This document shows positions 17,006 to 44,652 of a DNA stretch of 64,000 nucleotides, in pieces. A model generated the notes under the pieces. The model was not told where the DNA came from, ran no database searches, and was given only the letters and a program-made list of their open reading frames with translations. Made by a program: the position numbers and the translations under genes. How positions within the stretch are numbered: position 1 is the first letter of the stretch; each line of letters begins with the position of its first letter. The DNA is from Actinomycetospora chiangmaiensis DSM 45062 (lineage in GTDB: Bacteria > Actinomycetota > Actinomycetes > Mycobacteriales > Pseudonocardiaceae), in assembly GCF_000379625.1 (NCBI RefSeq), contig NZ_KB903220.1, forward strand, positions 34,624 through 98,623. The letters run 5' to 3'.

Positions 17006-18553
17006 TCAGCCCGCGAGGGACGCCCGGAGGTCGGCGAACAGGTCGGTGCGGGACTCCGAACCGAGGCGCTGACGCATGCCCCGCACGTGGTGCTCGACGG
17101 TCTTCGCCGTGATGAACAGGCGGTCGCCGATCTCGCGGTAGGTCAGCCCGTCGAGGAGCAGCTCCGCGACCTCGCGCTCCCGGTCGGAGAGCACGCCGGG
17201 CCGGGGGGAGGGGGTCACGACGACGGGCGCGTCCGGCTCCGCGGGGGCGGCCTCGGTGGTGGGCAGCACGGTCGGGCCGGCGAGGATGCCGCGGGCGAGG
17301 TTGAGCATGGCGGCGAGGACCCGCTTGTCGCTGGTGCGGACGGCGGCCTCCTTCGCGAGGCGCGCGCCGTCGTAGGCCATGCCCGCGTCGGACAGCGAGC
17401 CCGCGACGGCACTGACGTCGTCGGCGTCGACGTCCCCGGCGAGCACCCGCAGCCAGGTGCGGGCGGCCCGGGACAGGACCAGCGCGAGCGACCCGGCGTG
17501 GGCCGCGACGTCGGCGGCGCCCTCGGCGAGGTGGGCGGCGTGGCGCTGGGCGGCGGGCGGGTCGTCGGCCGCGACGGCGGCGAGGAAGGCGCACCAGTGC
17601 CACGGCGCGGCCCAGAGCACGGGCTCGCCGAGCGCGGTCAGCAGCTCGTCGCCGGCCTGCAGGTGGGGGGCGAGCCAGGCCAGCTGGCCGAGGCGGCCGG
17701 CCACGACGGCCAGCTCCCCGATCGGCAGCAGCGACCACAGGTCCACGGCGTGCCGGAGCACCGCCTCGCGCGCCCGGGACCAGACCGCGAGCAGGCCGCG
17801 GGTGTCGCCGGCCCGGCGCACGAGCCCGGCCTCCAGGGCGACCGCGACCAGCTCGTCGCGCGCGTGGACCGGCTCGGGACGGGCGTTCGCCGCGTCGAGG
17901 CCCGCCCGCGCGGCGAGGAGGTCGCCGCCCGCCATGTCCGCCCACGCCCGCAGCAGCAGGTGGCGGCGACGGTAGGGCGCGCCGCCGAGGTCGGCGGCCA
18001 GGGCACGGTCGACGAGGGTGCGGGCGAGGTCGGGCTCCCCGCGGTGCAGCGCCACGAGGGCGCCGAGCGCCGCGGGCGAGTCGTCGTGCAGCACGGGGGT
18101 GGCGCGGCATTCGAGCATCGCGGCGGCGCGGGTGAGGTCGGACAGCGCCGACGCCGAGCCCGCGGGCCGCACACTCGCCCGGATCGCCTTCCCGACGAGG
18201 CCGTCGGCGCCGGTCCGCAGGGTCGGCGGCGCGGGCCGCGACGGGTCGGCCGGGCAGGTGGGGAGCTCCTGCCCGGTCCCGACCAGCGCGATCGCGGCCG
18301 CGGACGACGCGCCGCTCGGGGCCACGGCGGCGACCCAGGCGTGCAGCGCGGCGGCGTCGGCCAGCATCCCGCGGTGGGCGTGCACCCCGGCGAGGACGTG
18401 GGCGGCCCGGACGAGGTCGGCCACCGGGGCCTCCGACGCCAGCACCTCGTCGGCGCAGCGGGCGGCCTCGACGAGCTCTCCGGTCAGCGCGGCCTGCTCG
18501 GCCAGCGTCACGAGGTCGGCGGTCATGGGTCGCTCGAGCTCGGGGGCGCTCAC
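17006..18553 (-). CDS. LuxR-type regulator of ini-like locus 1
   Basis: 515 aa. A long alpha-helical, Ala/Leu-rich N-terminal region (about 1-420) looks like a TPR-type array without the STAND ATPase motifs of MalT-class regulators. A C-terminal LuxR/NarL helix-turn-helix follows (about 450-505: LSDREREVAELLLDGLTYRE, then KTVEHHV and RLGSESR). The GTG/ATG junction with the upstream hsp70-like gene overlaps by 4 bases, so the two are made from one message. It diverges from iniB/A/C and is the obvious candidate regulator. Its paralogue at 35914-37452 keeps the blocks SPAALGALxALHRGEP and WSRAR-ALLRH. In M. tuberculosis iniBAC is controlled by IniR, a different protein. Confidence 0.85.
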   Translation of the reverse strand: MSAPELERPMTADLVTLAEQAALTGELVEAARCADEVLASEAPVADLVRAAHVLAGVHAHRGMLADAAALHAWVAAVAPSGASSAAAIALVGTGQELPTCPADPSRPAPPTLRTGADGLVGKAIRASVRPAGSASALSDLTRAAAMLECRATPVLHDDSPAALGALVALHRGEPDLARTLVDRALAADLGGAPYRRRHLLLRAWADMAGGDLLAARAGLDAANARPEPVHARDELVAVALEAGLVRRAGDTRGLLAVWSRAREAVLRHAVDLWSLLPIGELAVVAGRLGQLAWLAPHLQAGDELLTALGEPVLWAAPWHWCAFLAAVAADDPPAAQRHAAHLAEGAADVAAHAGSLALVLSRAARTWLRVLAGDVDADDVSAVAGSLSDAGMAYDGARLAKEAAVRTSDKRVLAAMLNLARGILAGPTVLPTTEAAPAEPDAPVVVTPSPRPGVLSDREREVAELLLDGLTYREIGDRLFITAKTVEHHVRGMRQRLGSESRTDLFADLRASLAG

Positions 18554-20658
18554 GTCGCCGTGCCGGAGGGGGTGGTCGTCGGGCCGGGAGCGGTCGACGT
18601 GCCGCCCGTGCCCGTGCCACCCGTGCCACCGGCCGTGCCCCCCGTACCCCCGGTCCCGCCGGTGCCCCCCGTGCCGCCGGTGGGCGGCGGGGTCGTCTTC
18701 CCGGTGCCCGGCGTGGGGGCCGGAGCTGGGGCGGGAGCGGGAGCGGGAGCAGGCGCCGGGGCAGGAGCCGGGGCGGGTGCGGCGGCGGGCGGCGGCACGA
18801 CCGCGGGGGCGGCCGCCGGCGGGACGGCGGCCGGGACCACGGGCTTCACGGCCGCCGGAGTGGCGGCGCGGCTCCTGGTCGCGGCGACCGGGGTTGCCGC
18901 GCGGCCGGAGTTGTCGGTGGCGCCGCCGGAGCCGAGGGTGCCCGGCGGCAGGGTGCCGGCGGCGTTGGCCGGGGGAGCGGCCGCAGCCGGGGTCGCGGCG
19001 TTCGGGGCGGCGGACGCGGCGACGGAGGCGTCACCGCTGGTGTTCCTGACCATCGGCACGGCCACGGCGACCACGCCGCCCGCGACCAGCACCGCCGCGG
19101 CACCGGCGCCGATGGCGAGGCGGCGCTTGCGGGTGTCGGGCTTCCCGGGCGGCTGGAGCTGTCCGGTCCAGCCCGCGGGGGCGGCGACCGGGGAGGGCCG
19201 CAGAGCGCTCGTCGGCATCGGGGTGCGGCTGGGGAGGCCGTTGCCCAGGGTGTCGGTGACGGGGTCGTCATCGAGGTGCGGGCCGACGCGGACCGGGTTG
19301 GTCCGCGGGTCCTCGGCGTGGGCGCGCAGCGCGGCGGCGGGCCCGACGAACTCGGTACGGGGTTCCGCCTCGGCGTGCGCGAGGAGCGCCGCGGCCGGGC
19401 CGACCCACTCGGTGCGGGGCTCCACCGCAGGACGCTCGAAGGGCCCCGAGATCGGGGCACGACCCGGCGTCGGGAAGGGGCCGGAGGCGGCGGGGAAGGG
19501 GCCGGAGGCGGCGGGGAAGGGGCCGGAGGCGGCGGGGAAGGGGCCCGAGGGCGGGCGGATGACGCCCGAGGCGGCCGCAGCGGCCCAGGTGGCGCCGCGG
19601 GCGACGACGGAGGTCGGGTCCGGGTCGATGGAGACCGGGCGGCCGAGCTCGGCGGTGAGCATCCGCGCGACGAGCGGGATGCGGGAGGACCCGCCGACGA
19701 GCAGGACGCCGTCGAGGTCGGTGGGGCGGAGGCGGGCGGAGTCGAGCACCTCGCCGAGGACGTCGATCGTCTGGCGCAGGGCCGGGGCGATCATCTCCTC
19801 GAACTCGCCGCGGGTGACGCGGACGCGGGTGGTCACGTTCGGCAGGCGGACCTCGACGACGGCCTCGGTGTCGACCGACAGCGCCTCCTTGGCCGCCACG
19901 CAGGCGCGGCGCAGGCCCGAGACGGCGCGGACGGTGGCGGGGTCGGCCGGGTCGAGCGAGGCGACGGCGCCGCCGAGCTCGGAGCAGACGTGCCAGAACA
20001 GGGCCTCGTCGAAGTCGATGCCGCCGAGGGCCTCGATGCCCTGGCCGCGGCCGAGGACGGTCAGGCCGACCGGTGCGACAGGTGAGGCGGGGACCCCGCG
20101 GACGACGGCGGCGTCGAAGGTGCCGCCGCCGAGGTCGTAGACGGCGACGGTGCGCCCGACCGGCAGGCGGCCGGCGGCGGCGTGGGCGGAGGCGGCGGCC
20201 TCGGGCTCGGTGAGCAGGACGACGTCGTGCAGGCCGACCTCGGCGAGCGCCTCGGTGAACACGCGGCGGCGGTAGGCGCCCCACCCGGCGGGGTGCGCGA
20301 CGGCGAGGCGGCGCGGCTCGCGGCCCTGCTGCTCGGCGACGCGGTCGGCGGTCCAGCGGACCATCTCGGCGGCCACGCCGTCGGCGGAGAAGCCCTCGCC
20401 GGCGACGACGATCGGGGTGTCGTCGCCCAGGCGGCGCTTGAACTCGCGGACCACACGCTGCGGGGCCCACGGAGCGCGGGCCTCGGCCTCGCCGCCCACC
20501 AGGAGGGACCCGTCGTCGTCGACCAGGAGGACGGAGGGGACCTGCGTGCCCTGGCGGTCGAGGGGGACGACGTGCACGTCGGGCGCCGGCTCGAGGTGCA
20601 CGGCCGCGGCGGTGAAGGTGGTGCCGAGGTCGATGCCGAGGTCGTACGCCAGCGGCAT
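18550..20658 (-). CDS. membrane-anchored Hsp70-like protein, locus 1
   Basis: 702 aa. An Hsp70/actin-fold ATPase domain (about 1-360) has GIDLGTTFTA (phosphate 1), VYDLGGGTFDAAVV (phosphate 2, DLGGGTFD at 175-182) and VLLVGGSSRIPLV (adenosine motif, about 318-330). There is no substrate-binding domain. Instead there is a linker with a 7-residue repeat (ASGPFPA), the motif SGPFPTPGR at 392-400 and an 18-residue duplicate (EPRTEWVGPAAAL / EPRTEFVGPAAAL), then one transmembrane helix (about 514-537) and an Ala/Pro- then GGT-rich tail. Topology predicts a cytoplasmic ATPase and external tail. Start ATG 20658 places the first beta strand correctly. Confidence 0.88.
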   Translation of the reverse strand: MPLAYDLGIDLGTTFTAAAVHLEPAPDVHVVPLDRQGTQVPSVLLVDDDGSLLVGGEAEARAPWAPQRVVREFKRRLGDDTPIVVAGEGFSADGVAAEMVRWTADRVAEQQGREPRRLAVAHPAGWGAYRRRVFTEALAEVGLHDVVLLTEPEAAASAHAAAGRLPVGRTVAVYDLGGGTFDAAVVRGVPASPVAPVGLTVLGRGQGIEALGGIDFDEALFWHVCSELGGAVASLDPADPATVRAVSGLRRACVAAKEALSVDTEAVVEVRLPNVTTRVRVTRGEFEEMIAPALRQTIDVLGEVLDSARLRPTDLDGVLLVGGSSRIPLVARMLTAELGRPVSIDPDPTSVVARGATWAAAAASGVIRPPSGPFPAASGPFPAASGPFPAASGPFPTPGRAPISGPFERPAVEPRTEWVGPAAALLAHAEAEPRTEFVGPAAALRAHAEDPRTNPVRVGPHLDDDPVTDTLGNGLPSRTPMPTSALRPSPVAAPAGWTGQLQPPGKPDTRKRRLAIGAGAAAVLVAGGVVAVAVPMVRNTSGDASVAASAAPNAATPAAAAPPANAAGTLPPGTLGSGGATDNSGRAATPVAATRSRAATPAAVKPVVPAAVPPAAAPAVVPPPAAAPAPAPAPAPAPAPAPAPAPAPTPGTGKTTPPPTGGTGGTGGTGGTGGTAGGTGGTGTGGTSTAPGPTTTPSGTAT

Positions 20659-21026
20659 CGCGCTCCGTGCCGTCCCCGCCCGCTGCGGGCCCACCATCGT
20701 CACACCCAGCTCCATCTCGCCCCGGCCGCCCGGACGGGGCGGCGTCGTGTCGCTGACTCGTGCGCATCATCGACCCGTTCCGCGTCGTCGTTACACATTC
20801 GTAGCTCTATCGAGTGAGGGTGGTCCGTTCGGTGGGTGCAGCTACGTCACTTGCTGTGACCCCGGGGTGCCGACCAGGGGATGGGGCCCCGATCCCCTAG
20901 GGGGTCCTCCACGGAACCCGGCGGGAGCCCCGATGGCCGGCGGCCCCCCGACGACGACTGTTCTCACCACGCCGCTCGGGCCGTCCGGCACCGAGCGCTC
21001 ACCTTCACCGTCTGGGGGCAGACACC
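20659..21026. promoter_or_regulatory. divergent regulatory region of ini-like locus 1
   Basis: 368 bases between hsp70-like and iniB-like starts. It holds a perfect palindrome ACCCCGGGGT (20859-20868), a near-palindrome GATCCCCTAGGGGGTC (20891-20906), CCGATGGC (20930-20937) and, 18 bases further, GACTGT (20956-20961), a likely -10 box. The same motifs occur at matching spacing before iniB of locus 2. A less GC-rich patch around 20790-20815 (ttacacattcgtag) may hold the promoter of the minus-strand hsp70-luxR operon. The palindromes are candidate sites for the LuxR protein. Confidence 0.6.
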
Positions 21027-21977
21027 ATGAGCGAGCACAAGACCCTCCTCGAGTTCCTGATGGACCTCCTCAACAACCACGACGCGCTCGCCGAGTTCCG
21101 CGACGACCCGCACGCCGCGCTGCAGGCCGCCGGCCTCGGCAACGTCTGCGTCGACGACATCAAGGAGCTCCTCCCCGTCGTCCTGGAGAAGGTCGACGCG
21201 CAGAAGTGCGCGCAGTACGAGGACGACTGCGACGACGACAAGTGCTGGGACTCCGAGCCCAAGCACCACGACGACCACGAGCACCACTGCAAGCCGATCG
21301 ACTGCGACGACGAGGGCCGCCCGGCGCCGCACTGCTCCGAGATCGACAAGGTCGTCACGCACCTCAACTACGTGACGAACAACTACTCGTACGACTCGCA
21401 CGACACGATCTACAACACCACCAACGTGACGAAGATCTGGGCCGGCGACGGCTCGGACGTGAACGTCACCAACGAGACCAACAACATCGGCTCGCACGGT
21501 GTGCAGGTCCAGGGCGACTCGAACGCCCCGATCGTGACCGGCGACCACAGCTTCGTGGGCGACGGCAACCAGATGTCCGGCGACGGCTCCACCACCGCCT
21601 TCGGTGCGGGCAACGCCACCTCGCTCGACCACGTCGGCACCGGCCAGAACGGCGTCATCTCCACCGGCTCCGGCACGGTGAACAACTCGGGCGCCTTCGG
21701 CCACGGCAACCAGGTCGCCGGCGCCAACGGCGTGAACACCAACACCGACTCGTCGAACCACGACTCGGGCAACACCACGCTGCACACCGACTCGCACAAC
21801 ACGGACAACTCCGGGTCGCACAACATCACCGACTCGCAGAACCACACGACCGACTCGCACGACACCGACACGTCGCACTCGAACAACACCACGACCGACG
21901 AGCAGCACAACGCGCTCGTCGACGCCAGCCACGGGGCGGTGTCCCCGCTCCTGGACGTGGCGCACGTCGGCTTCTGA
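21027..21977 (+). CDS. IniB-like protein, locus 1
   Basis: 316 aa. The IniB N-terminal domain (about 1-56, TLLEFLMDLLNNHDALAEF, then ELLPVVLEKVD) is followed by a Cys/His/Asp-rich segment (Cys61, 68, 73, 88, 93, 103; His80, 81, 84, 86, 87), the conserved block EIDKVVTHLNYVTNNYSYDS (105-124) and a long Asn/Thr/Ser/Gly/Asp-rich low-complexity tail to the end. No signal peptide or membrane helix. In mycobacteria iniB heads the isoniazid-inducible iniBAC operon. Its role is unclear; here it could be a disordered partner or scaffold for the two dynamin-like proteins. ATG 21027 has gggggca upstream. Confidence 0.85.
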   Translation: MSEHKTLLEFLMDLLNNHDALAEFRDDPHAALQAAGLGNVCVDDIKELLPVVLEKVDAQKCAQYEDDCDDDKCWDSEPKHHDDHEHHCKPIDCDDEGRPAPHCSEIDKVVTHLNYVTNNYSYDSHDTIYNTTNVTKIWAGDGSDVNVTNETNNIGSHGVQVQGDSNAPIVTGDHSFVGDGNQMSGDGSTTAFGAGNATSLDHVGTGQNGVISTGSGTVNNSGAFGHGNQVAGANGVNTNTDSSNHDSGNTTLHTDSHNTDNSGSHNITDSQNHTTDSHDTDTSHSNNTTTDEQHNALVDASHGAVSPLLDVAHVGF

Positions 21978-22066
21978 GCCGACCCGCCCATCGGGTGACG
22001 GGCAGCCGGGGACGAGCGGCACGACGGTCGGAGCGGGCCGCGTAACGTTCCCCGGGTGACGACGAG

Positions 22067-22097
22067 GCCGGGACACGGGAGACCGTGTCCCGGCTTT
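22067..22097 (+). terminator. hairpin between iniB and iniA, locus 1
   Basis: A perfect 12-bp stem, GCCGGGACACGG (22067-22078) with CCGTGTCCCGGC (22083-22094), a GAGA loop and TTT directly after. It has the form of an intrinsic terminator, lies 21 bases before iniA, and would lower iniA/iniC expression relative to iniB. A comparable hairpin occupies the same gap in locus 2. Confidence 0.75.
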
Positions 22098-22117
22098 CGT
22101 GCGTGCAGGGGAGGGAC

Positions 22118-23929
22118 ATGAAGAAGGACCTGGTCGACCTCGTCAAGGTCGCCCGGCAGGCGGCGACGGCCTACGGCCGGCCCGACCTGGAGAAGCGGCT
22201 CTCGACGGTGTCCGCATCGGTCGCGGACGACCGGGCGCGGGTGCTCGTCATGGGCGAGTTCAAGGCGGGCAAGACCGAGCTGGTCAACGCCGTCCTCGGC
22301 GGCCGGGCCCTGCCCACGGACGCCCACCGGGCGACGACCGTGCCCACGGTCTGCGTGCAGGGGGCGCAGCGGTCGGTGATGCTGGCCCGTGCCGTGGCGG
22401 GCGGCGAGGAGCAGCAGCAGGTCGCGCCCGCCGAGCTCGCCGAGCACGTCACGGAGGCGGGCAACCCCGACAACCGCGCGGGCTGGTCGTACGCCGAGGT
22501 GACGCTGCCGGTCGACGCGCTCGACGGCATGCGGCTCGTCGACACCCCCGGTGCGGGCGGGCTCGCGTCCCCGGCGTCGGTCTCGACGATGGCGGAGCTC
22601 CCCGGCGCGGACGCGGTGCTGCTGGTCTGCGACGGGGGCCGGGAGCTGACCGCCCCCGAGCTCGCCCTGGTGCGCACGGCGTCGGCGGTGTGCCCGACGG
22701 TCGCGGTCGTGCTCACCCGCACCGACCTGCACCCGCACTGGCGGCGCATCGCCGACCTCGACCGGGCCCACCTCGACCACGCCCACGAGTCGTTGCGCCG
22801 GGTCCCCGTCCTCCCCACATCGGCCGCCCTGGCTCTGCACGAGGAGGCCTCGCTCCTCGCCGAGTCCGGCCTGCCGGACCTGCGGGAGCTGCTGCGCACC
22901 GAGGTGGTCGGCGGCCGGCACGCGCGGCGCACGCGGATGGCGGCCGACGAGGTGCTCGTGGTCTGCGAGCAGCTCTCGGCCCGGTTCCGCGCGGAGCGGG
23001 ACGCGCTCGCCGACCCCGGCCGGGCGCAGCGCATCAGCGACGAGCTGGAGCGGTCGAAGGCGCGGGTCGTCGCCCTGCGCGACCGTGCCGCCCGCTGGCA
23101 GCAGACGCTCAACGACGGCACGCAGGACCTCGTCTCCGACATCGAGTACGACCTGCGCGACCGCCTGCGCACCGTCACCACCGACGCCGAGGCCGCGCTC
23201 GACGACACCGATCCCGCGAAGACGTGGGAGCAGTTCGCGCCGTGGCTGCACCAGCAGGTCTCGGCCGCGGTGTCGACGAACGTGGTCTGGGCTGAGGAGC
23301 GCACGCGCTGGCTCGCCGAGCGGGTCGCGACCCACTTCGCCGAGGACGGCGCCGGGGTCCTCCCGCCGATGGCCTCGCCGGAGGGTCAGGTGATGGCGGC
23401 CGACCCGGTCGGCCTGCTCGCCGCGCCGGACCACGAGAAGTTCGGGCTGTCGCAGTCGTTGATGATCGGGATGCGCGGCTCCTACGGCGGCGTGCTGATG
23501 ATCGGCATGATGACCACGATCGCCGGGATGGCCCTGCTCAACCCGTTCTCGGTCGGCGCGGGCCTGCTGCTCGGCTCGAAGACGCTGGTCGACGAGCGCA
23601 AGCGGGCACTGCGCCGCCGGCAGTCCGAGGCGAAGCAGGCGGTGCGCCGCCACGTCGACGACGTGATCTTCCAGGCGGGCAAGAACTCCCGCGACATGCT
23701 CCGGGAGGTCCAGCGCACGCTGCGCGACCACTTCACGACGACGGCCGAGGAGCTCGAGCGCTCCCTCAACGCCACCTCGCAGGCGGCCAAGGCGGTGGAG
23801 GCGGACGGGGCGAAGCGCCAGGCCCGGCTCGCCGACGTCGCGGCGGAGCTGGAGCGGCTCGAGGCACTGGAGCAGCGGGCGCGCCGGATCCGGGAGAGCG
23901 TCGGGAGCGCCCGGCTGGTCGGCGCGTGA
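22118..23929 (+). CDS. dynamin-like GTPase IniA-like, locus 1
   Basis: 603-aa bacterial dynamin. GTPase motifs: G1 GEFKAGKT (46-53), switch Thr in HRATTVPT, G3 DTPG (142-145), G4 TRTD (200-203). A helical stalk follows, then a hydrophobic paddle (about 455-488: SYGGVLMIGMMTTIAGMALL, NPFSVGAGLLLG) for insertion into membrane, and a C-terminal coiled helix. In mycobacteria IniA causes nucleotide-independent membrane fission and helps survival of cell-wall drugs. ATG 22118 is chosen because aggggaggg lies just before it; an upstream frame from 22085 runs through the hairpin and is rejected. Stop overlaps iniC by 4 bases. Confidence 0.9.
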   Translation: MKKDLVDLVKVARQAATAYGRPDLEKRLSTVSASVADDRARVLVMGEFKAGKTELVNAVLGGRALPTDAHRATTVPTVCVQGAQRSVMLARAVAGGEEQQQVAPAELAEHVTEAGNPDNRAGWSYAEVTLPVDALDGMRLVDTPGAGGLASPASVSTMAELPGADAVLLVCDGGRELTAPELALVRTASAVCPTVAVVLTRTDLHPHWRRIADLDRAHLDHAHESLRRVPVLPTSAALALHEEASLLAESGLPDLRELLRTEVVGGRHARRTRMAADEVLVVCEQLSARFRAERDALADPGRAQRISDELERSKARVVALRDRAARWQQTLNDGTQDLVSDIEYDLRDRLRTVTTDAEAALDDTDPAKTWEQFAPWLHQQVSAAVSTNVVWAEERTRWLAERVATHFAEDGAGVLPPMASPEGQVMAADPVGLLAAPDHEKFGLSQSLMIGMRGSYGGVLMIGMMTTIAGMALLNPFSVGAGLLLGSKTLVDERKRALRRRQSEAKQAVRRHVDDVIFQAGKNSRDMLREVQRTLRDHFTTTAEELERSLNATSQAAKAVEADGAKRQARLADVAAELERLEALEQRARRIRESVGSARLVGA

Positions 23930-25485
23930 GCGGCGCCGCCGACACCCGCACCCGACTCACCGACCAGGCCCGATCCGTCGTCGGGAACGCGCAGCGGCTC
24001 TACGGGAGCGGGCCCGCCGACCCGGTGACCGACTGGGCGCGCGCCGTCCTGCACGACGCACGGTCCCGGCTCGACGAGCCGCTGCGGGTGGCGCTCGCCG
24101 GGACCCTGAAGGCGGGCAAGTCCACGCTGCTCAACGCCCTGGTCGGGGAGCGCGTGGCGGCGACCGACGCGGGGGAGTGCACGCGCCTGGTCACCTGGTA
24201 CCGCGACGCGCCCTCGCCGACGGTGCTGCGCGAGGACCTCGACGGCCGGCGTGGTCCGGTCCCGTTCGCCCAGGACGGCGAGGGGCTGCGGATCGACCTG
24301 CGCGGCGTGGACCCGACACGGGTCGGGCGGCTGCTGGTGGACTGGCCGTCGCGCGGGCTCGCGGAGACGACGCTGGTCGACACCCCCGGGCTCGACTCGA
24401 TCCGCGAGACCAACTCCCGGCGCACCCTCGCGTTCGTCACGCCCGAGGACCGGCCCTCCGGGGCCGACGCCGTCGTCTACCTGATGCGGCACGCGCACCG
24501 GAACGACGTCGGGTTCCTCGAGGCCTTCGCCGACCTCGCCCGCGGCGGTGCCGGCGGCCTGGGCGCGGTGGGCGCCTCGGGCACCGTCGTGGTCCTCTCC
24601 CGCGCCGACGAGATCGGCGGCGGGGGCCTCGACGCCATCACGACGGCGGGTCGGGTCGCCGAGGCCTACCGCGCGGACCCGGCGCTGCGCCCGCTGTGCC
24701 AGACGGTCGTCGCGGTCGACGGGCTGCTCGCCGAGACGGCGCGGACGCTGCGGCAGGCCGAGTTCACCGCCCTGCGGGCGCTCGCCCGGGCCCCGCGCGC
24801 CGAGGTCGACGCGCTGCTCCTCTCGGCCGACCGGTTCTGCTCGGCCGAGCCCCCCGCCGTCGTCGCGGAGGCCCTCGCGTCCGACCCGGACGGCGTCCGG
24901 CTCGACGCGCCCACCCGGCGCGCGCTCATGGACCGCTTCGGTGTGTACGGCATCCGGACCGCGACCACCGTGCTGCGCCGCGGTGCCCGGACCGGGCGTG
25001 GGGTGGTCGACTCGGTGTCGCTGGCCGAGGAGCTGGTGCGCCGGTCCGGGCTCGAGGAGCTGCGCGAGGTGCTCGCGTCGCGGGTGGTCGGGCGGCGCGA
25101 TGTGCACAAGGCCCGGTCGGCGTTGCTCGCCGTCGAGATGGTGCTGGCCCGGGCGCCGCGACCCGACACCGGGCCGCTCGCCGCCGAGCTCGAACGGGTC
25201 CTCACGGGCGCCCACGAGTTCACCGAGCAGCGCCTCCTCGCGGCCCTGCGGCAGGGTCAGGTGACGATGCCGGCCGACACCCAGCCGGAGGCCGAGCGCC
25301 TGCTGGGCGGCGACGGTCCCGACCCGCGGGACCGGCTCGGCGGCGCCGACGACGTCCGGGCCGCTGCGCTGGAGGCGCTCGACCGTTGGCGGACGCGGGC
25401 GGAGTCGCCACTGACGTCACGGGCGGCGGCCGAGGTCGCCCGGGCCGCTGTGCGGTCGTGCGAGGGCGTGCTGACGTACCTGTAG
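23926..25485 (+). CDS. dynamin-like GTPase IniC-like, locus 1
   Basis: 519-aa partner GTPase. G1 GTLKAGKS (59-66), switch region ECTRLVTWY, G3 DTPG (152-155), G4 SRAD (225-228). It lacks the hydrophobic paddle of IniA and ends in Arg/Glu-rich helices. GTG start overlaps the iniA stop by 4 bases, which suggests that the two proteins are made in equal amounts and act as a heteromeric pair, as paired bacterial dynamins often do. Its last 69 bases overlap the convergent EamA gene on the other strand. Confidence 0.88.
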   Translation: MSGAADTRTRLTDQARSVVGNAQRLYGSGPADPVTDWARAVLHDARSRLDEPLRVALAGTLKAGKSTLLNALVGERVAATDAGECTRLVTWYRDAPSPTVLREDLDGRRGPVPFAQDGEGLRIDLRGVDPTRVGRLLVDWPSRGLAETTLVDTPGLDSIRETNSRRTLAFVTPEDRPSGADAVVYLMRHAHRNDVGFLEAFADLARGGAGGLGAVGASGTVVVLSRADEIGGGGLDAITTAGRVAEAYRADPALRPLCQTVVAVDGLLAETARTLRQAEFTALRALARAPRAEVDALLLSADRFCSAEPPAVVAEALASDPDGVRLDAPTRRALMDRFGVYGIRTATTVLRRGARTGRGVVDSVSLAEELVRRSGLEELREVLASRVVGRRDVHKARSALLAVEMVLARAPRPDTGPLAAELERVLTGAHEFTEQRLLAALRQGQVTMPADTQPEAERLLGGDGPDPRDRLGGADDVRAAALEALDRWRTRAESPLTSRAAAEVARAAVRSCEGVLTYL

Positions 25486-35664: not shown

Positions 35665-35693
35665 CGACCGTGCGTGACCCAGGTCCCGGCGAC

Positions 35694-35880: not shown

Positions 35881-35913
35881 GGCAGGGGCGGGTGACGGTG
35901 GTGGCGGCGCCGA

Positions 35914-37452: not shown

Positions 37453-39608
37453 GAGGCCGTCCCGGTGGTCGGGGTGACGGTCGGGGCGGGACCGGCGGCG
37501 ACCGGGGTGTCGGCGGTGGTCGGGGCGACGGCCGGGGCCTGGGCGACCGGGCTCGTGCCGTCGGACGCGGGGGAGGTCGGCGCCACGGGTACCGGGGCGG
37601 ACGGGGCCGGTGCCGCCGGGACGGCGGCGGGTGCCACCGCCTGCGGGGCGGCGACCGGCGCCGGGCCCCCGGCGGCCGGTGCGGCGGGTCGGAGCTGTGT
37701 GGTCGGGGTCCGGGAGGAGCGGGTCGCCGTCGCCGGACGACGCGTGGTGCTCCCGGCCGCGGACGACGTCGGCTCCGTGCCGGTCGCGGCGGCCGGTGGC
37801 GCCGCGGCGGACGACCCGGCCGCGGGCGAGGACGGCTCGGCGGACGGCGCCTCGAGCGGCGGGACCGCCGGGGCGGCGGCCGGGGTGGGCGCGCTCGAGG
37901 TCGGGGTGGAGGTGGTCGTCGCCGTGCGCGTAGCGGTGAGGCCGGGGATCGGCACCATGACGGCGACTGCGGCGAGCACGAGCAGGGCGAGCGCCACCAC
38001 GATCCAGACGCGGTAACGGCGCAGGGGACCCTGCGGGGCGCGCTCGCCGACCGGGGCGGCCGCCGTGGCGACGGGCGGGCGGGGCACGTCGTCGCCGACG
38101 GTGCGGGGCCGCTCCAGCAGGGCGGTCGACCCAGAGCGGGCGGGCTCCCGGACGTCGTCGGCCCGCTCGTCCGGCGTCGGATCCACGGCACGACGACGGG
38201 CGGCGGACGCGCCGAGCGCGGCGCCGGCGGTGATGGCCGCCCCGACGGCACTGTGCCGGTTCGCGGGCGCCGGGAACGCCGCAGACGCTGCGGGCGCTGC
38301 GGGCGCCGTGGACGCCGTGGACGCCGCGGGCACCGAGGGAGTGGTCGCCGAGGGAGTGGTCGCCCGGCGCTCGGCCTCGACCCGGCGCCGTTCCCGCACG
38401 TCCGCGGCCGCGGCGGCGAACTCGCCCCGACCCGGCGTCGGGAAGGAGCCGGAGGCCGAGCCGGTCAGGGCCTCCTGACGACGGGCGGCCGCGTGGCCGG
38501 CCGCGGCGAGGGCCGCACCCTCGGCGACGACCGTGACCGGATCGAGCTCGGGGTGCACCGGGCGGCCGAGCTCCTCCGCGAGCAGGCGCGCGACCAGCGG
38601 GATGCGGGACGAGCCGCCGACGAGCACGACCTGGTCGGGCGTGACCCCGGCGGCCTCGAGGGTGCCGGCGAAGGTGTCGACGGTGGCCGCGACGAGCGGC
38701 GTGATCCGGGTTTCGAGGTCGGCGCGCGTGATGCGGACGGTCGTGTCGAGGGGACCGACCGTCACCCGCACCGACGCCTCGGTCTCCGCCGACAGCCGTT
38801 CCTTGGCGCGGCGGGCCGACCGCTGCAGCGCCGCCAGGGCGTGGCGGGAGGCGTTGTCGTCGAGGGCCGCGATCGCGGTGTCGAACGGCTCGCCGAGCTC
38901 CTCGCGGACGAGGGCGAGCACGGCGCCGTCCACGTCGGTGCCGCCCGCGCGGACCGGGGCGCCGGAGTCGGCGAGCACCTCGGTGGTGGTCGTCCCCGGG
39001 CCGGCCGTGCCGCCGTCGGTGCCGGCGGCGACGACACCGCGGGCGCCACGACGGACGACGGCGGCGCGGAAGCGGCGACCGCCGAGGTCGTACACGGCGG
39101 CGACCCGGCCGGCGCGCAGGCCGCCGAAGGTCGACGCGGCAAGCACGGCCGCCCGGGACTCCGCGACGAGCACGGCGTGCCCGAGCCCGACCCGGACGAG
39201 CGCCCGGCGCAGCGTGCGCTCGCGGTGGGTGCCCCACCCGGCGGGACGGGTGACCGCGAGCGAGCGCGCCGCGCCGCCCTCGAGGGACGCGACCCGCCGC
39301 ACGGCGGCGAGCACGATCTCGGCGGCCACGTCGTCCGCGCGCCAGGGCTCGTCGCCCACGATCAGGGGGACGTCGTCGCCGAGGCGCGCCGAGACGTCGC
39401 GGACGGCCCGGTCGGGTTCGAGGGCGGCCCGTCGCTCCGCCTCGGTGCCCGTGCGCACCACCCCGTCACTGCCGCGGTGGGCGGTCGCGGGCATGATCGG
39501 CGACCCGTCGGCGCCGAGGCCGACGGCCGCCGTGCGGGCCTCGCCGTCACGCAGGACCGCCGCGACCACGGTCGTGCTGCCCAGGTCGACCCCGAGGTCG
39601 TAACCCAC
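37449..39608 (-). CDS. membrane-anchored Hsp70-like protein, locus 2 (degenerate phosphate loop)
   Basis: 719 aa. Hsp70 fold with GVDLGSTTVVA (phosphate 1) and VVLVGGSSRIPLVA (adenosine), but the phosphate-2 motif is YDLGGRRFRAAVV (DLGGRRFR at 174-181) instead of DLGGGTFD; the catalytic/phosphate-binding Gly-Thr and Asp are replaced by Arg. ATP turnover is therefore doubtful. No substrate-binding domain. The linker carries SGSFPTPGR (387-394), shared with locus 1. One transmembrane helix at about 533-552 is followed by a Pro/Ala/Thr/Ser-rich external tail. Start ATG 39608. Confidence 0.87.
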   Translation of the reverse strand: MGYDLGVDLGSTTVVAAVLRDGEARTAAVGLGADGSPIMPATAHRGSDGVVRTGTEAERRAALEPDRAVRDVSARLGDDVPLIVGDEPWRADDVAAEIVLAAVRRVASLEGGAARSLAVTRPAGWGTHRERTLRRALVRVGLGHAVLVAESRAAVLAASTFGGLRAGRVAAVYDLGGRRFRAAVVRRGARGVVAAGTDGGTAGPGTTTTEVLADSGAPVRAGGTDVDGAVLALVREELGEPFDTAIAALDDNASRHALAALQRSARRAKERLSAETEASVRVTVGPLDTTVRITRADLETRITPLVAATVDTFAGTLEAAGVTPDQVVLVGGSSRIPLVARLLAEELGRPVHPELDPVTVVAEGAALAAAGHAAARRQEALTGSASGSFPTPGRGEFAAAAADVRERRRVEAERRATTPSATTPSVPAASTASTAPAAPAASAAFPAPANRHSAVGAAITAGAALGASAARRRAVDPTPDERADDVREPARSGSTALLERPRTVGDDVPRPPVATAAAPVGERAPQGPLRRYRVWIVVALALLVLAAVAVMVPIPGLTATRTATTTSTPTSSAPTPAAAPAVPPLEAPSAEPSSPAAGSSAAAPPAAATGTEPTSSAAGSTTRRPATATRSSRTPTTQLRPAAPAAGGPAPVAAPQAVAPAAVPAAPAPSAPVPVAPTSPASDGTSPVAQAPAVAPTTADTPVAAGPAPTVTPTTGTAS

Positions 39609-39920
39609 CGTATTCCCCCATCACTCGGTTGACCGCATACCGGCGCTCCCCCGTCAAGCGCAACATACTGCGCCAATCGGAGGAAGAAGAGTCACGGTTG
39701 AGGCGCGCCACCCGAGTGGGCGTCGAGAGTCGGGTGAACGGTGGGGCTGGTGGGGTGAACGGGACCCCGGGGGTGTGACCGGCCGGGGGGTGGTCGGATC
39801 CCCCTCCTCCCCGGATCGGGTTCGCGGGCGGAACACCGATGGCAGCGGCGCCCCGGATTCCTAACGTTGCTCCCAACGCCGGATCAGAGAGGTCCGGAAG
39901 GAGCAACCCTGGAGTGCACG
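39609..39920. promoter_or_regulatory. divergent regulatory region of ini-like locus 2
   Basis: 312 bases. GACCCCGGGGGTG (39763-39775), GATCCCC (39797), CCGATGGC (39836-39843) and TAACGT (39862-39867, likely -10 box, 18 bases after CCGATGGC). The first three motifs sit 34 and 73 bases apart from the first, against 33 and 72 in locus 1, and the one-base difference equals the extra G in the first motif. A possible minus-strand promoter lies around 39655-39680 (catactgcgcc). Candidate binding sites for the LuxR proteins. Confidence 0.6.
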
Positions 39921-40868
39921 ATGCCGGCGACCGAGGCCAAGACCCTGCTGCAGTTCCTGCTCGACCTGCTGCGCGACCCGCAGACCCAGGCGGCGTTCGA
40001 CGCCGACCCCCAGGCCACGCTCACCGCGGCCGGCCTGGACGGGATGTGCTTCGCCGACGTGCGTGACGCGCTGCCGCTGGTCATGGACCACGCGCCCGCC
40101 GCCGTCGCCGCCCGGTACGACGACGACGTCCGCGCCGCCTCCGCCTCGGCCGTCGCGGTCGTCGGCGAGGACTACCACCACGGCCACGACGAGCACCACT
40201 GGATCCCCGGCCCCGTCCTCCCGTCGCACGCCCCGGAGGTCGACAAGGTCATCCAGCAGCTGCAGTACGTCACCAACAACTACGCGTACGACTCGCACGA
40301 CACGAACCTCGAGACCAACCTCGAGCAGAACATCCGCGCCAACGGCGACGTGACCACCACGCTGAACCAGCCCGTCGCCTCCGGCGCCGGTGCGGTGGCC
40401 GCGGGCGGCGCCATCACGTCCCCGGTCGCGACCGGCGCGGGCTCGTCGGCCGCCGACAACGGCTCGCAGGCCAACGGCAGCGGCACCGCGGCCTTCGGGG
40501 GCGGCAACGCCTCGAGCGTCGGCGGCTCGATCGGCGTCGACCACGGTGGCGCGGTCTCGCTGCAGGGCGCCGCGACCGGTGGCGCCGACAACTCGGCGAC
40601 GAACTTCGGCTCGGGCGCGGCCGCCAGCAACGCCGCGGCGACCCACACCGAGACGCCGACCACCACGGTGACCCAGACCGACAACAGCCAGACCGACAGC
40701 AACAACGCCGACAACTCGCAGCACACCAACACCAACACCGGTGCCGGCGACCAGACCGCCGCCGAGCGCGAGGCCTCGCCGCTGTTCGCCCACGAGGACG
40801 CGGCGCACACCGCCGCGGCCGACACCCTGGCCGCGCACGACCACGCCCTGGTCGAGCACCACGCCTGA
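39921..40868 (+). CDS. IniB-like protein, locus 2
   Basis: 315 aa. IniB N-terminal domain (about 1-60, TLLQFLLDLLRDPQTQAAF, DVRDALPLVMDH), a His/Asp-rich linker with a single Cys in the whole protein, the conserved block EVDKVIQQLQYVTNNYAYDS, and a long Ala/Gly/Ser/Asn/Thr-rich low-complexity tail. Compared with locus 1 the Cys cluster is missing, so any metal binding differs between the two. No signal peptide. ATG 39921 with ggag six bases upstream. Confidence 0.85.
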   Translation: MPATEAKTLLQFLLDLLRDPQTQAAFDADPQATLTAAGLDGMCFADVRDALPLVMDHAPAAVAARYDDDVRAASASAVAVVGEDYHHGHDEHHWIPGPVLPSHAPEVDKVIQQLQYVTNNYAYDSHDTNLETNLEQNIRANGDVTTTLNQPVASGAGAVAAGGAITSPVATGAGSSAADNGSQANGSGTAAFGGGNASSVGGSIGVDHGGAVSLQGAATGGADNSATNFGSGAAASNAAATHTETPTTTVTQTDNSQTDSNNADNSQHTNTNTGAGDQTAAEREASPLFAHEDAAHTAAADTLAAHDHALVEHHA

Positions 40869-40952
40869 TCGGGCACGACGTCCCGGGGGCTGCCCCCCGC
40901 ACCCCGCCCCCGGGACGGGTCGTGGCGACCGCGCCCGCCGCGACCCGACCGG

Positions 40953-40987
40953 CAGCCGGGGCCCCGCCACGTCAGGGGCCCCGGCTG
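40953..40987 (+). terminator. hairpin between iniB and iniA, locus 2
   Basis: Perfect 13-bp stem CAGCCGGGGCCCC (40953-40965) with GGGGCCCCGGCTG (40975-40987) around a 9-base loop, in the 251-base gap between iniB and iniA. TAGAGT at 41047-41052 after it could be the -10 box of a separate iniA promoter. Same position in the gene order as the hairpin in locus 1. Confidence 0.75.
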
Positions 40988-41119
40988 TCCTGCGTGTCCA
41001 CCGTCCGAGGCGCCCGCGTCGCCCCGGCCCCGTCGAGGCCGGGCGTTAGAGTCGGCCGAACGGGCCAACGTGTTGGTTCGATCAGACGGAGCGGGGGCCG
41101 GACCGACGCGGGGGGCGAC

Positions 41120-43099
41120 GTGGAGGGGCAGGACACCGGGGCGACCGTGACGGCCGGTCCCGACCGGGACGAGGCACGGGCGGTCACCGCGCTGGCCGTG
41201 CGGGCGGCCGCGGCGTACGGGCGCCCCGACCTCGCGGCCGACCTCGACGCGGCGGCGGACCGCCTGGCGGACCCGGGGGCGCGGGTCCTCGTCGTCGGGG
41301 ACTTCAAGCAGGGCAAGAGCGCGCTGGTCTCGGAGCTCGCAGGAGCGGTCGTCTGCCCCGCGCACGACGACGTGGCCACGCGACTGCCGACCGTGGTCCG
41401 GCACGGCCCGGAGCCGGCGGCGGTGCTCGTCGGCGCGGGCGAGGAGGGGACCGAGGTCCGACGGCGGGTCACCGCGAACGAACTCACGGCCGCCGTCACG
41501 GGACGGACCGACGGCTGGGACCACGCCGAGGTCGAGCTCCCCGAGGGACTCGTCGCCGACGGGCTCGTCCTCGTCGACATGCCGGGGGAGGGCGGGCTGC
41601 GCTCGGCCCGCGGCCTCGCGGTGCGGGCGGGCTTCCCGGCCGCGCACGCCGTCGTCGTCGTGACCGACGCGTCGCGGGAGCTGACCGCCCCGGAGCTGGC
41701 GCTCCTGCGGGCGGCGGACCGGCAGTGCGCCACCGTCGTCGTCGCGCTGACCAAGGTCGACCTGCACCCGCGCTGGCGGGAGGTCCGCGACCTCGACCGG
41801 CACCACCTGCAGGCCCACGACCTCCGCCGCGTCCGAGTGGTCCCGGTGTCGTCGACCCTCGCGGCGCACGCCCGGCGGCTCGGCGACGACGGGCTGCTGG
41901 CCGAGTCCGGCGTGCCGGCGCTGGCGGACCTGCTCCGCGCCGAGGTCGCCGACCCGGCGGGCGCCCGGCACGCCGTCGCCGTGCTCGACCAGGTCGCCGA
42001 GGCGGTCACCGAGTTCGCCGCGGCCCTCGAGGCCGAACGGATCGGGCTCGAGGACCCGGCCCGCGCCGCCGAGCTGGCCCGCGAGCTCACGGCCGCCCGC
42101 GCCCGCGCCGCCGAGCTCAAGGAACGCAGCGCCCGCTGGCAGCAGACGCTGGCCGACGGGGTCGCCGACCTGGTCTCCGACATCGACTGGGACCTGCGCG
42201 ACCGGATCCGCCATGTCGTCCGCGCCGGGGAGGAGGCGCTCGACGCGGCCGACCCGGCGTCGTCGTGGGAGACCTTCGCGCCCTGGTTCACCGACGAGAT
42301 CTCGGAGGCGGTCACGACGACGTTCATCTGGGCCGGGGAGCGCACGTGGCGGTTGGCGGAGCGGGTCGCCGAGCACTTCGCGCTCTCCGGCGACTCGGTG
42401 CGCTCGCAGCTGCCCGGCGCCCCGGCCGCGACCGCCCTCGTGGCGCCCTCGCCCCCGGAGTCCCCGACGGAGCAGACCATGCCCGGCGGGATGGTCGTGC
42501 GGGCCGAGCTGCCCGACGTGCCGGGCATCGAGCTGCCCGAGCTGGAGCGGATCGGCTGGGCCAACGGGTTCGTCGTCGGGATGCGGGGGTCCTACGGCGG
42601 GGTGCTCATGGTCGGGATGGTGACCACGCTGTCCGGCCTCGCCCTGATCAACCCGTTCTCGGTGGGGGCCGGTGTGCTGCTCGGGTCGAAGACCATCCGC
42701 GACGAGCGCAAGCGCGCCCTGCAACGACGGCGGGCGGAGGCCAAGCAGGCGGTCCGACGCCACGGCGACGAGGTGCTGCACCTCGCGAGCAAGCGGTCCC
42801 GGGATCTGCTGCGCGACGTCCAGCGCACGCTGCGCGACCACTTCACCGCGCAGGCCGAGTCGCTCGCCCGCTCCGTCGCCGACGCCGTGACCGCGGCCGC
42901 CGCGGCCCAGGAGATCGAGAGCGGTCGGCGGGAACGGCGGCTCCGCGACGTCACCGCCGAGCTCGCCCGCGTGGAGCTGCTCGCCGGGCGGGTCGCGGCC
43001 TGCCGGGCGTCGTTCGTCGCCACCCTCGCGCGTGGGGGGAGCCCTCGGGCCACGAGGGCCTCCCACGACCGCGAGCTGACCGCCGGCGGTGTGCGATGA
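41120..43099 (+). CDS. dynamin-like GTPase IniA-like, locus 2
   Basis: 659 aa. G1 GDFKQGKS (60-67), G3 DMPG (153-156) rather than DTPG, G4 TKVD (211-214). Helical stalk, then a paddle with the same signature as locus 1 (MRGSYGGVLMVGM, NPFSVGAGVLLGSKT) at about 495-530 and a DVQRTLRDHFT helix. A 40-residue insertion rich in Pro precedes the paddle. GTG 41120 follows gggggcga; the frame is open further upstream. The Met at G3 could slow hydrolysis. Stop overlaps iniC by 4 bases. Confidence 0.88.
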   Translation: MEGQDTGATVTAGPDRDEARAVTALAVRAAAAYGRPDLAADLDAAADRLADPGARVLVVGDFKQGKSALVSELAGAVVCPAHDDVATRLPTVVRHGPEPAAVLVGAGEEGTEVRRRVTANELTAAVTGRTDGWDHAEVELPEGLVADGLVLVDMPGEGGLRSARGLAVRAGFPAAHAVVVVTDASRELTAPELALLRAADRQCATVVVALTKVDLHPRWREVRDLDRHHLQAHDLRRVRVVPVSSTLAAHARRLGDDGLLAESGVPALADLLRAEVADPAGARHAVAVLDQVAEAVTEFAAALEAERIGLEDPARAAELARELTAARARAAELKERSARWQQTLADGVADLVSDIDWDLRDRIRHVVRAGEEALDAADPASSWETFAPWFTDEISEAVTTTFIWAGERTWRLAERVAEHFALSGDSVRSQLPGAPAATALVAPSPPESPTEQTMPGGMVVRAELPDVPGIELPELERIGWANGFVVGMRGSYGGVLMVGMVTTLSGLALINPFSVGAGVLLGSKTIRDERKRALQRRRAEAKQAVRRHGDEVLHLASKRSRDLLRDVQRTLRDHFTAQAESLARSVADAVTAAAAAQEIESGRRERRLRDVTAELARVELLAGRVAACRASFVATLARGGSPRATRASHDRELTAGGVR

Positions 43100-44652
43100 G
43101 CCGACTCCTCGACGAGACGCGCGGGGTCCTCGACCACGCGCTCACCGTGTTCGCCGCCGACCCGCACGTCGTCGGCGCCCTCACCGCGCACCGCGCCCGG
43201 TTGGGTGGCCCGCTGCGCATGGCCCTCGCCGGCTCGATCAAGACCGGCAAGTCGACGCTGCTCAACGCCCTGGTCGGCGAGCAGATCGCGCCGACGGGCG
43301 TGGGGGAGTGCACCCGCGTCACCACGCACTACGCCGACGGGCCCAGCCCCCGCATCGGGGTGACCTACCGCGGCGCGCCCCGCGACGACGACCCCGTCGA
43401 GCTGCCCGCCCTCCACCGGCGCGGCTCGCTGGTCATCGAGACCGAGCGCCTCGACCTGGCCCGCGTCGCCGCGCTGCACGTCGACTGGCCCACCCAGCAC
43501 CTGCGCGACGTCACCCTCATCGACACCCCCGGCGTCGACTCGGCGGTGACCCGCAGCGTCTGGGGCGAGCTGTCCGAGGACGTCGTCGACTGCGTCGTGC
43601 ACCTCGTGCGCCACCTGCACGAACCCGACGTCGCCTTCCTCGAGTCCTACGGCGACCGCGTCGCGGAGAACGTCGGGGCCGCGGGCACGCTCGTGGTGCT
43701 GTCGCGTGCCGACGAGGTCGGGGGCGGCCGGGTGGACGCGGTGATGGCCGCCCAGCAGGTCGCCCGCCGCTACCGCACCGACCCCGCGCTCCGGCCCTGG
43801 TGCGCCACGACGACGACCGTCGCGGGCCTGGTCGCCGAGACCGCCCGGACGCTGCGCGGAGTGGAGTTCACGTCGCTGCGGACCCTCGCCCGCCTCGACC
43901 GCGCCGAGCTCGACGCGCAGCTGCTCACGGCCGACCGGTTCGTGGCGGCCCGTGGGGTGCTGCCGTCGGGGACCCGCCTCGCGCTCCTCGACCGGTTCGG
44001 CCTGTTCGGCGTCCGGCTGGCCACCTCGTTGCTGCGCCGCGGCGTCGACGACTCGGCCGCCCTCGCCGTCGAGCTCGCGCGCCGCAGCGGCCTCGACGAG
44101 CTGCGCGACATCCTCGAGCAGCGCTTCCTCGCCCGCCGCGACGTCTTCCAGGCCCGGTCGGCCCTGCTCGCCGTCGACCGGTTCCTCGCCCGGGCCCGCG
44201 CGGAGGTCCCGACGACGGGGGTGGTCCCCCCGCGGCCGTCCCCGGTCCCGCGGACCCTGCCGCCGGCCGCGCCCGCCGCACTCGCCTCACTCACCGAGCA
44301 CGTGGAGCGGGTGCGGACGGGGGCCCACGAGATCGTCGAGCTGGACGTCCTCACCCGGCTGCGCCGTCGCCCGCTCGAGGTGCCCGGACGGGCCGGGGCC
44401 GCGCTGACCGAGGAGGCCGAGCGCCTCCTCGGCGACCAGGGGGCGTCGGCGCCCGCCCGGCTCGGCGTCGCCGCCGAGACGGGCCCCGGCGAGCTGCGGG
44501 CCGTCGCCCTCGCCGCGCTCGGCCGCTGGCGCGGGCACGCCGACAACCCGCTCGCCGACCCCGACGCCGTCGAGACCGCGCAGGTCGTCGTCCGCTCGCT
44601 GGAGGGGCTGCTCGTCGAGCTCCCGCGTCCCGTGGCGGTCGGGGTGGGCTGA
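43096..44652 (+). CDS. dynamin-like GTPase IniC-like, locus 2
   Basis: 518 aa. G1 GSIKTGKS (46-53), switch ECTRVTTHY, G3 DTPG (143-146), G4 SRAD (203-206). Shares with locus 1 the blocks GKSTLLNALVGE, VGGGRVDAV/IGGGGLDAI and FLARRDVFQARSALLAVDRF (VVGRRDVHKARSALLAVEMV in locus 1). No hydrophobic paddle. Starts at ATG 43096 inside the stop region of iniA, so likely a heteromeric pair. It is the last gene of the plus-strand operon; no clear terminator follows before a decayed gene. Confidence 0.87.
   Translation: MSRLLDETRGVLDHALTVFAADPHVVGALTAHRARLGGPLRMALAGSIKTGKSTLLNALVGEQIAPTGVGECTRVTTHYADGPSPRIGVTYRGAPRDDDPVELPALHRRGSLVIETERLDLARVAALHVDWPTQHLRDVTLIDTPGVDSAVTRSVWGELSEDVVDCVVHLVRHLHEPDVAFLESYGDRVAENVGAAGTLVVLSRADEVGGGRVDAVMAAQQVARRYRTDPALRPWCATTTTVAGLVAETARTLRGVEFTSLRTLARLDRAELDAQLLTADRFVAARGVLPSGTRLALLDRFGLFGVRLATSLLRRGVDDSAALAVELARRSGLDELRDILEQRFLARRDVFQARSALLAVDRFLARARAEVPTTGVVPPRPSPVPRTLPPAAPAALASLTEHVERVRTGAHEIVELDVLTRLRRRPLEVPGRAGAALTEEAERLLGDQGASAPARLGVAAETGPGELRAVALAALGRWRGHADNPLADPDAVETAQVVVRSLEGLLVELPRPVAVGVG

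What the first reader, a model, noticed from the sequence alone, without database searches (positions are those of the whole stretch)
17006..44652. Two complete paralogous copies of a dynamin-Hsp70-LuxR-IniB system, 10 kb apart
Seen: copies at 17006-25485 and 35914-44652 each have luxR and hsp70-like genes (minus) diverging from iniB, iniA and iniC (plus), with the same orientation and the same 4-base overlaps (luxR/hsp70 and iniA/iniC). Known: iniBAC of mycobacteria codes for IniB and two dynamin-like proteins induced by cell-wall drugs, but the M. tuberculosis locus lacks this partner pair, to my knowledge. Inference: a five-part module in which a membrane-anchored Hsp70 and a non-ATPase LuxR protein control or assist a dynamin pair, present twice so the copies can specialise.
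Basis: partly seen in the sequence, partly recalled or inferred. Interest (0 to 1): 0.9.

Follow-up and report, generated by a model that had tools for sequence, protein, structure and literature searches.

The report
Twin envelope-stress dynamin modules, Hsp70-gated
This bacterium carries three copies, two of them 10 kb apart, of a gene set related to the drug-induced iniBAC stress operon of mycobacteria; in the two neighbouring copies the control protein has lost its ATPase part and is encoded together with a predicted membrane-anchored Hsp70 relative that likely acts as the stress sensor which models of this response still lack.

Summary
In detail: two five-gene modules (17006-25485, 35914-44652) share gene order, orientation and four 4-base overlaps. 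The genome (genus Actinomycetospora) has a third ini locus on another contig, with full-length IniR. The "LuxR" genes are IniR, the iniBAC activator, without its ATPase domain; so M. tuberculosis does have this partner, and a dnaK-like gene beside iniR is in print for M. smegmatis. Of 26 other sampled IniR genomes, 24 have an Hsp70-like gene within 10 kb. These Hsp70s have a nucleotide-binding domain, no substrate-binding domain, a predicted transmembrane helix and a P/A/T/S/G-rich tail. Trees of four proteins support one module duplication giving A and B early in the genus, after IniR lost its ATPase domain; most B-type Hsp70s later lost catalytic residues but stay under purifying selection. 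A promoter motif is shared by the three loci. I infer that the Hsp70 is a membrane switch that gates IniR (predicted MalT-like sensor plus HTH), which induces the dynamin pair. Binding, sensing and induction are untested; an action on the dynamins instead is the main rival. New variant of a known kind; it makes the unresolved sensing step testable.

The parts
17006..18553 (-). iniR-like gene, copy A: predicted MalT-domain-III-like helical repeat plus LuxR-type HTH, no ATPase domain (alternative ATG start at 18526)
18550..20715 (-). Hsp70-like gene, copy A: intact nucleotide-binding motifs, no substrate-binding domain, predicted TM helix at residue 535, 168-residue P/A/T/S/G-rich tail
   Evidence: Pfam HSP70 best stretch is profile 103-377 of 599; K, E and DLGGGTFD kept
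20928..20937 (+). promoter motif CCCCGATGGC, 99 bases before the start of iniB of copy A
   Evidence: CCCCGATG in 41 of 72 iniB-upstream stretches, 2.3 expected; position
21027..21977 (+). iniB-like gene, copy A: helical N-terminal IniB domain; the rest has no confident structure
   Evidence: NCBIfam IniB_NTERM 60.7 bits, cut-off 40; model of low confidence, best part about residues 7-56
22085..23929 (+). iniA-like dynamin gene, copy A (start may be 22103)
   Evidence: matches M. smegmatis IniA structure 6j72 over residues 17-595, E 1.5e-104
23926..25485 (+). iniC-like dynamin gene, copy A; 4-base overlap with iniA
   Evidence: Pfam Dynamin_N E 2.5e-10; tree of 78 rows
35914..37452 (-). iniR-like gene, copy B, no ATPase domain
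   Evidence: NCBIfam IniR profile positions 333-825 of 827, E 8e-91
37449..39608 (-). Hsp70-like gene, copy B: degenerate catalytic site (K to S, DLGGGTFD to DLGGRRFR), predicted TM helix and tail kept
   Evidence: dN/dS 0.14 and 0.27 against two relatives
39834..39843 (+). promoter motif CACCGATGGC before iniB of copy B, followed by CCTAACGTT at 39860-39868
39921..40868 (+). iniB-like gene, copy B (ATG; an in-frame TTG lies upstream at 39867)
   Evidence: NCBIfam IniB_NTERM 65 bits, cut-off 40
41120..43099 (+). iniA-like dynamin gene, copy B
   Evidence: Pfam Dynamin_N E 1.7e-12; tree of 82 rows
43096..44652 (+). iniC-like dynamin gene, copy B; 4-base overlap with iniA
   Evidence: Pfam Dynamin_N E 4.9e-13; tree
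45144..47356 (+). hrcA (45144-46163) and dnaJ (46202-47356), the flank of copy B in the genus
   Evidence: named by own reading of the translations, no family scan; hrcA located in 18 genus genomes

Best explanation
The window holds two diverged copies of one module - a predicted membrane-anchored Hsp70-like protein, an IniR-type regulator without its ATPase domain, IniB, and the dynamin pair IniA/IniC - in which the Hsp70-like protein likely reads envelope damage through its predicted extracytoplasmic tail and would gate IniR, which would then switch on iniBAC. Shown by sequence: gene content, order and overlaps; absence of the IniR ATPase domain in both copies; the Hsp70 nucleotide-binding domain without substrate-binding domain; a sequence motif before iniB of A and B and before the third locus's operon; trees that support one duplication of the module. 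Predicted: the transmembrane helix, the tail outside, the MalT-domain-III-like sensor fold. Inferred: the Hsp70 holds or releases IniR at the membrane as a binding switch rather than as a folding machine, since its catalytic site decayed more than once while the protein was kept; IniR binds the shared motif; the dynamins and IniB then mend or stabilise the plasma membrane. Copy B, with neither ATPase site, would be a hydrolysis-independent version.
Against: No binding, localisation or expression data. In two genomes (L121, L122) an Hsp70 of this type stands beside IniA/IniC with no IniR found in the fetched stretch, so its partner may be the dynamins. In many Pseudonocardia loci the Hsp70 diverges from iniB while IniR lies at the far end. 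The same Hsp70 type (E 1e-70) occurs without IniA (E 1e-80) in 16 of 34 genomes. Seven of 56 fully flanked loci lack it. One genome with mycobacterial-type IniR (G082) has IniR and IniA but no such Hsp70 within 17 kb, and PMC5760070 names the dnaK-like gene for M. smegmatis only, so the response can work without it there.
Confidence: 0.45

Rival explanations
1. The Hsp70-like protein works on the effectors: it anchors or assembles IniB or the IniA/IniC dynamins at the membrane and has no direct role in gene control.
For: In L121 and L122 Hsp70, IniA and IniC stand together without a detected IniR; in Pseudonocardia-type loci the Hsp70 shares its upstream region with iniB, not with iniR.
Against: In 33 of 82 loci the Hsp70 is directly upstream of IniR on the same strand, with 4-base overlaps in the window's two copies and in the 14 fetched Actinomycetospora A/B loci, two of them repeats; several genomes with mycobacterial-type IniR have Hsp70 genes on one or both sides of iniR.
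Confidence: 0.3
2. Copy B is a decaying duplicate: its Hsp70 and IniR have both lost their nucleotide sites and the genus is losing the module.
For: DLGGRRFR or DLGGRSFR in six B-type loci including the window; 9 of 18 genus genomes have no IniR match at E 1e-40, three of them incomplete assemblies; G296 keeps only the 3' ends of iniC and iniR beside hrcA.
Against: dN/dS of Hsp70 0.14 and 0.27, IniR 0.17 and 0.31, IniA 0.14 and 0.24, IniC 0.15 and 0.18 between copy B of this and two other species; no frame is broken; promoter motif kept.
Confidence: 0.1
3. The Hsp70 replaces the lost IniR ATPase as an enzyme in trans.
For: Copy A pairs an ATPase-less IniR with an intact Hsp70 site; 15 of 15 fully flanked loci with an ATPase-less IniR have an Hsp70.
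Against: Copy B has neither site, nor has L053; 29 of 35 fully flanked loci with full IniR also have the Hsp70, so the two are not alternatives.
Confidence: 0.08
4. The module is an anti-phage or other conflict system rather than an envelope-stress response.
For: Patchy presence in the genus; IniA of copy A matches the PADLOC model LeoBC (E 2.3e-17) and IniC LeoA (E 2.4e-12); Hsp70-GTPase conflict systems are described (PMC7159879, passages).
Against: The PADLOC matches are what general bacterial-dynamin homology would give; the IniB domain, IniR and IniA matches point to the known drug-induced ini locus; no effector domain among the ten proteins by Pfam.
Confidence: 0.07

Closest known systems
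iniR - iniB* - iniB - iniA - iniC of M. tuberculosis and M. marinum (PMC5760070, one section and passages read)
   Same: IniR beside the operon, IniB-domain proteins, IniA and IniC dynamins; the C13 locus has the full-length IniR
   Different: The window copies have an IniR without the ATPase domain, a membrane-type Hsp70 overlapping iniR, two copies side by side, and a degenerate Hsp70 in copy B
M. [quoted passage not shown]
   Same: An Hsp70-like gene beside iniR
   Different: That section gives no TM, tail, active-site or functional analysis of it; in five fetched loci with mycobacterial-type IniR the Hsp70 motif is degenerate (L083-L087), in copy A it is intact
MalT of E. coli (domain III structure 1hz4)
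   Different: No ATPase module in the window copies; the proposed membrane partner is an Hsp70-like protein, not a transporter
M. smegmatis IniA (6j72), a membrane-fission dynamin (PMC6715688, passages)
   Same: Homologous over nearly its whole length
   Different: Activity of the window proteins not tested
Type VII secretion-associated protein T7SS_Rv3446c (TIGR03931)
   Same: This genome's copy has an Hsp70-like N-terminal part and a hydrophobic stretch (L130:5232-7097)
   Different: Different C-terminal domain; no ini genes in the fetched stretch

Membership tests
IniR (NCBIfam NF038181) | C-terminal LuxR-type HTH and the sensor region of IniR | tested here: met
   profile 330-826 and 333-825 of 827; GerE 50 and 53.9 bits
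IniR (NCBIfam NF038181) | N-terminal ATPase domain | tested here: not met
   absent in A and B and in the fetched A/B-type genus loci; present in the C13 copy
IniR (NCBIfam NF038181) | score over the equivalog cut-off of 750 bits | tested here: not met
   331.7 and 305.6 bits; the full-length C13 copy has 404.8
IniB (NCBIfam NF038175) | IniB N-terminal domain over cut-off | tested here: met
   60.7 and 65 bits against 40
IniA bacterial dynamin | homology over GTPase and helical parts to IniA | tested here: met
   E 1.5e-104 over residues 17-595 to 6j72 for copy A; copies A, B and C align, G-x4-GK[ST] kept
IniA bacterial dynamin | GTP-dependent membrane fission | not testable with these tools
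   -
Hsp70/DnaK chaperones | nucleotide-binding domain | tested here: met
   Pfam HSP70 E 1.2e-39 and 5.8e-25
Hsp70/DnaK chaperones | substrate-binding domain | tested here: not met
   best profile stretch ends at 377 of 599 in both; hydrophobic stretch and low-complexity tail follow
Hsp70/DnaK chaperones | catalytic residues (positions recalled from DnaK) | tested here: not met
   kept in copy A and C13, lost in copy B
STAND signal-transduction ATPases (MalT kind) | NTPase module | tested here: not met
   no Walker A motif and no match to the C13 N-terminal domain profile in A or B
STAND signal-transduction ATPases (MalT kind) | MalT-domain-III-like sensor | tested here: met

The most novel reading that the evidence does not exclude
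The membrane-anchored Hsp70-like protein is the long-missing transmembrane sensor of the iniBAC response across actinobacteria: it works as a nucleotide-gated or even catalytically dead binding switch that holds a MalT-like activator at the membrane. In Actinomycetospora copy B the whole circuit runs without any ATPase site, so ATP sensing by IniR is not part of its core.
Probability: 0.3. Interest if true: 0.8.

Novelty: new variant of a known kind. Interest (0 to 1): 0.55.

Why it matters
How mycobacteria and their relatives sense cell-wall damage to switch on iniBAC is open. One paper places the sensing outside the cytoplasmic membrane although IniR is a DNA-binding regulator (PMC5760070, passages); another speculates that IniR senses ATP through its ATPase domain (PMC6104191, passages). 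An Hsp70-like gene lies beside iniR in 24 of 26 sampled genomes, with a predicted TM helix in 49 of the 50 rows read in full in the scanned loci: a concrete candidate for the first. A natural IniR without the ATPase domain is a ready test of the second. It would also show an Hsp70 fold reused as a signalling switch.

Tried and rejected
Separate arrival of A and B: not supported. Trees of IniA, IniC and IniR join them; the first Hsp70 tree (55 rows) did not. Holding them together scored 9.75 log units better than the free tree (p-AU 0.80); leaving out degenerate rows gave 93% (50 rows), and adding genus loci while leaving out L009 and L015 gave 98% (39 rows). All are quick-method trees with long branches, and the program warns that A and B are long branches that meet.

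Strict trade-off between IniR ATPase and Hsp70: rejected. A correlation between direct Hsp70-IniR coupling and loss of a nucleotide site (25 of 28 coupled against 13 of 40 uncoupled loci, Fisher p 4e-6) is not independent evidence: coupling changes only twice on the tree, giving one or two contrasts. The 68 rows are the 82 loci with both genes minus 8 cut by contig ends, 4 with a partial N-domain and 2 repeats. With these first labels the tree needed 6 changes for the IniR ATPase and 7 for the Hsp70 site; but L090, L091 and L094 keep part of the IniR N-terminal region by the NCBIfam profile (from 272, 123 and 193), and several Hsp70 labels rest on mild changes or weak matches. With those set aside (3 and 14 rows) it needs 4 and 4.

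IniB counts are too high, because two repeat-rich C13 proteins served as seeds and do not match the IniB domain. The Cellulomonas Hsp70 calls rest on weak scores (51-80 bits). In one search the motif finder took the first DLGG of L058, L105 and L107; searches give the right motif. L088 has an Hsp70 match that my gene caller missed. The called Hsp70s of L092 (364 aa) and L102 (weak match) showed no TM helix, and L100's was weak (1.3). IniB structure: low confidence (pLDDT 39). Foldseek alone ranked eukaryotic TPR proteins above MalT domain III (rank 20). Literature: beyond the one sentence in PMC5760070, no paper listed by the searches showed in its title or abstract start a link of an Hsp70 to iniBAC; most were seen as listings only.

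Full report
OBSERVATION. The two modules exist as described. Gene calling by codon-position composition and family scans give ten genes at the stated places, with four exact 4-base overlaps. The copies are 10.4 kb apart and homologous gene by gene at 39-49% identity. The genome, whose nearest named relatives are Actinomycetospora (IniA 93% identical in L003), has a third ini locus on contig C13: Hsp70, an IniB-domain protein with a repeat-rich protein on either side, IniA, IniC and, 2 kb further on, a full-length IniR.

HOW GENERAL IS IT. A scan of one genome per species with the IniA alignment gave the 80 best loci of a larger number. With the C13 locus added, 56 have at least 7.5 kb on both sides, and 49 of these 56 hold an Hsp70 of this type. 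This set is biased towards Pseudonocardiaceae. In a class-wide sample of 296 genomes, 27 have IniR at E 1e-40, 35 have IniA at E 1e-80, including all 27, and 34 have the Hsp70 at E 1e-70, 18 of them with IniA. Of the 26 IniR genomes other than this one, 24 have an Hsp70-like match (E 1e-30) within 10 kb of IniR (misses: G082, and G107 where IniR lies at a contig end), and 24 have IniA within 10 kb (misses: G107 and G118, on other contigs). Of seven such loci fetched (L083-L089), five show an Hsp70 beside iniR with a predicted TM helix and a degenerate motif, L083 and L084 two of them; in L088 my gene caller missed the match, and L089 has none. Against a dedicated partnership: L121 and L122 have Hsp70, IniA and IniC without IniR, and in seven fetched loci of one other family (L115-L120, L126) the Hsp70 stands without detected ini genes.

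HISTORY. Trees of IniA, IniC and IniR join copies A and B of the genus (100, 98, 99). The first Hsp70 tree did not, but a tree holding them together fits better. With seven more genus loci, two of them repeat fetches, and a subset of the other rows, all four trees give the same picture: A and B are one clade (IniA 100, IniC 99, Hsp70 98, IniR 99), the third copy stands apart, and the copy of G311 (L103) lies at the base of B (100, 99, 98, 97). L103 has a short IniR, a 4-base overlap and an intact Hsp70 site, so the likely order is: IniR lost its ATPase domain; the module duplicated; the B-type Hsp70 lost its catalytic residues later. Copy B lies within 10 kb of hrcA by coordinates in eight genus genomes, read gene by gene in five (window, L103, L105, L107, L112). 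G296 keeps only the 3' ends of iniC and iniR there, as an internal deletion would leave; four fetched hrcA sites have no module. Of 18 genus genomes, 9 have an IniR match and 5 have all three copies. Both copies are under purifying selection (dN/dS 0.08-0.31 for IniR, Hsp70, IniA and IniC; IniB 0.49-0.98). Over 68 loci the tree needs at least 4 changes for the IniR ATPase domain and at least 4 for the Hsp70 site with doubtful rows set aside (6 and 7 with all rows); parsimony alone cannot tell loss from gain.

CONTROL REGION. CCCCGATG occurs in 41 of 72 stretches of 150-320 bases before iniB, against 2.3 expected from random stretches of the same loci; related loci are not independent. The form C[AC]CCGATGGC occurs three times in the 64 kb window on both strands: before iniB of A, before iniB of B, and once inside iniR of B. 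It also lies before the first gene of the C13 operon (L001 4666). L060 has one changed base, and L103 showed no match. That IniR binds it is inferred; the HTHs of A, B and C share KTVEHHV.

MECHANISM. In mycobacteria IniR is needed for iniBAC induction and binds in front of the operon, and trehalose induces it in a mutant of the known inner-membrane importer (PMC5760070, abstract and passages); IniA cuts membranes in vitro (PMC6715688, passages). I propose that the Hsp70-like protein, not a chaperone by architecture, is the membrane part of this circuit: its tail reports on the wall, and its cytoplasmic domain binds the IniR helical-repeat sensor and holds or releases it. Decay of the catalytic site in several lineages with the gene retained argues for binding rather than hydrolysis. 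Confidence 0.45; the main rival is that the Hsp70 acts on IniB or the dynamins (0.30).

NOVELTY. The ini locus, IniR and a dnaK-like neighbour in M. smegmatis are known. The predicted membrane architecture and catalytic decay of that neighbour, its frequent presence beside IniR, ATPase-less IniR, and the module duplication did not turn up in the searches.

Noticed in passing
L001 4783-8058 (G000 contig C13): The third ini locus has a long repeat-rich protein on either side of its IniB-domain protein; they match no NCBIfam family.
   Followed up: partly
L002 5837-8895 (G000 contig C1): A lone IniC-like dynamin (481 aa) next to a 484-aa protein with a hydrophobic stretch and no family match, perhaps a further dynamin pair.
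   Followed up: no
L130 5232-7100 (G000 contig C1): An Hsp70-like protein with a type VII secretion-associated C-terminal domain (TIGR03931) sits between a large gene and two small WXG100-like genes (last two by own reading).
   Followed up: partly
L128 9154-10680 (G000 contig C27): A further Hsp70-like protein with a C-terminal hydrophobic stretch and degenerate motif, near a response-regulator-like gene (own reading).
   Followed up: no
L115-L120: In one other family, Hsp70s with a predicted TM helix stand without detected ini genes; in three of them (L115, L117, L118) I read a large neighbour that looks like a beta-helix repeat protein.
   Followed up: partly
L104 4769-5488: Possible deletion scar: the 3' ends of iniC and iniR lie end to end beside hrcA in genome G296.
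   Followed up: yes
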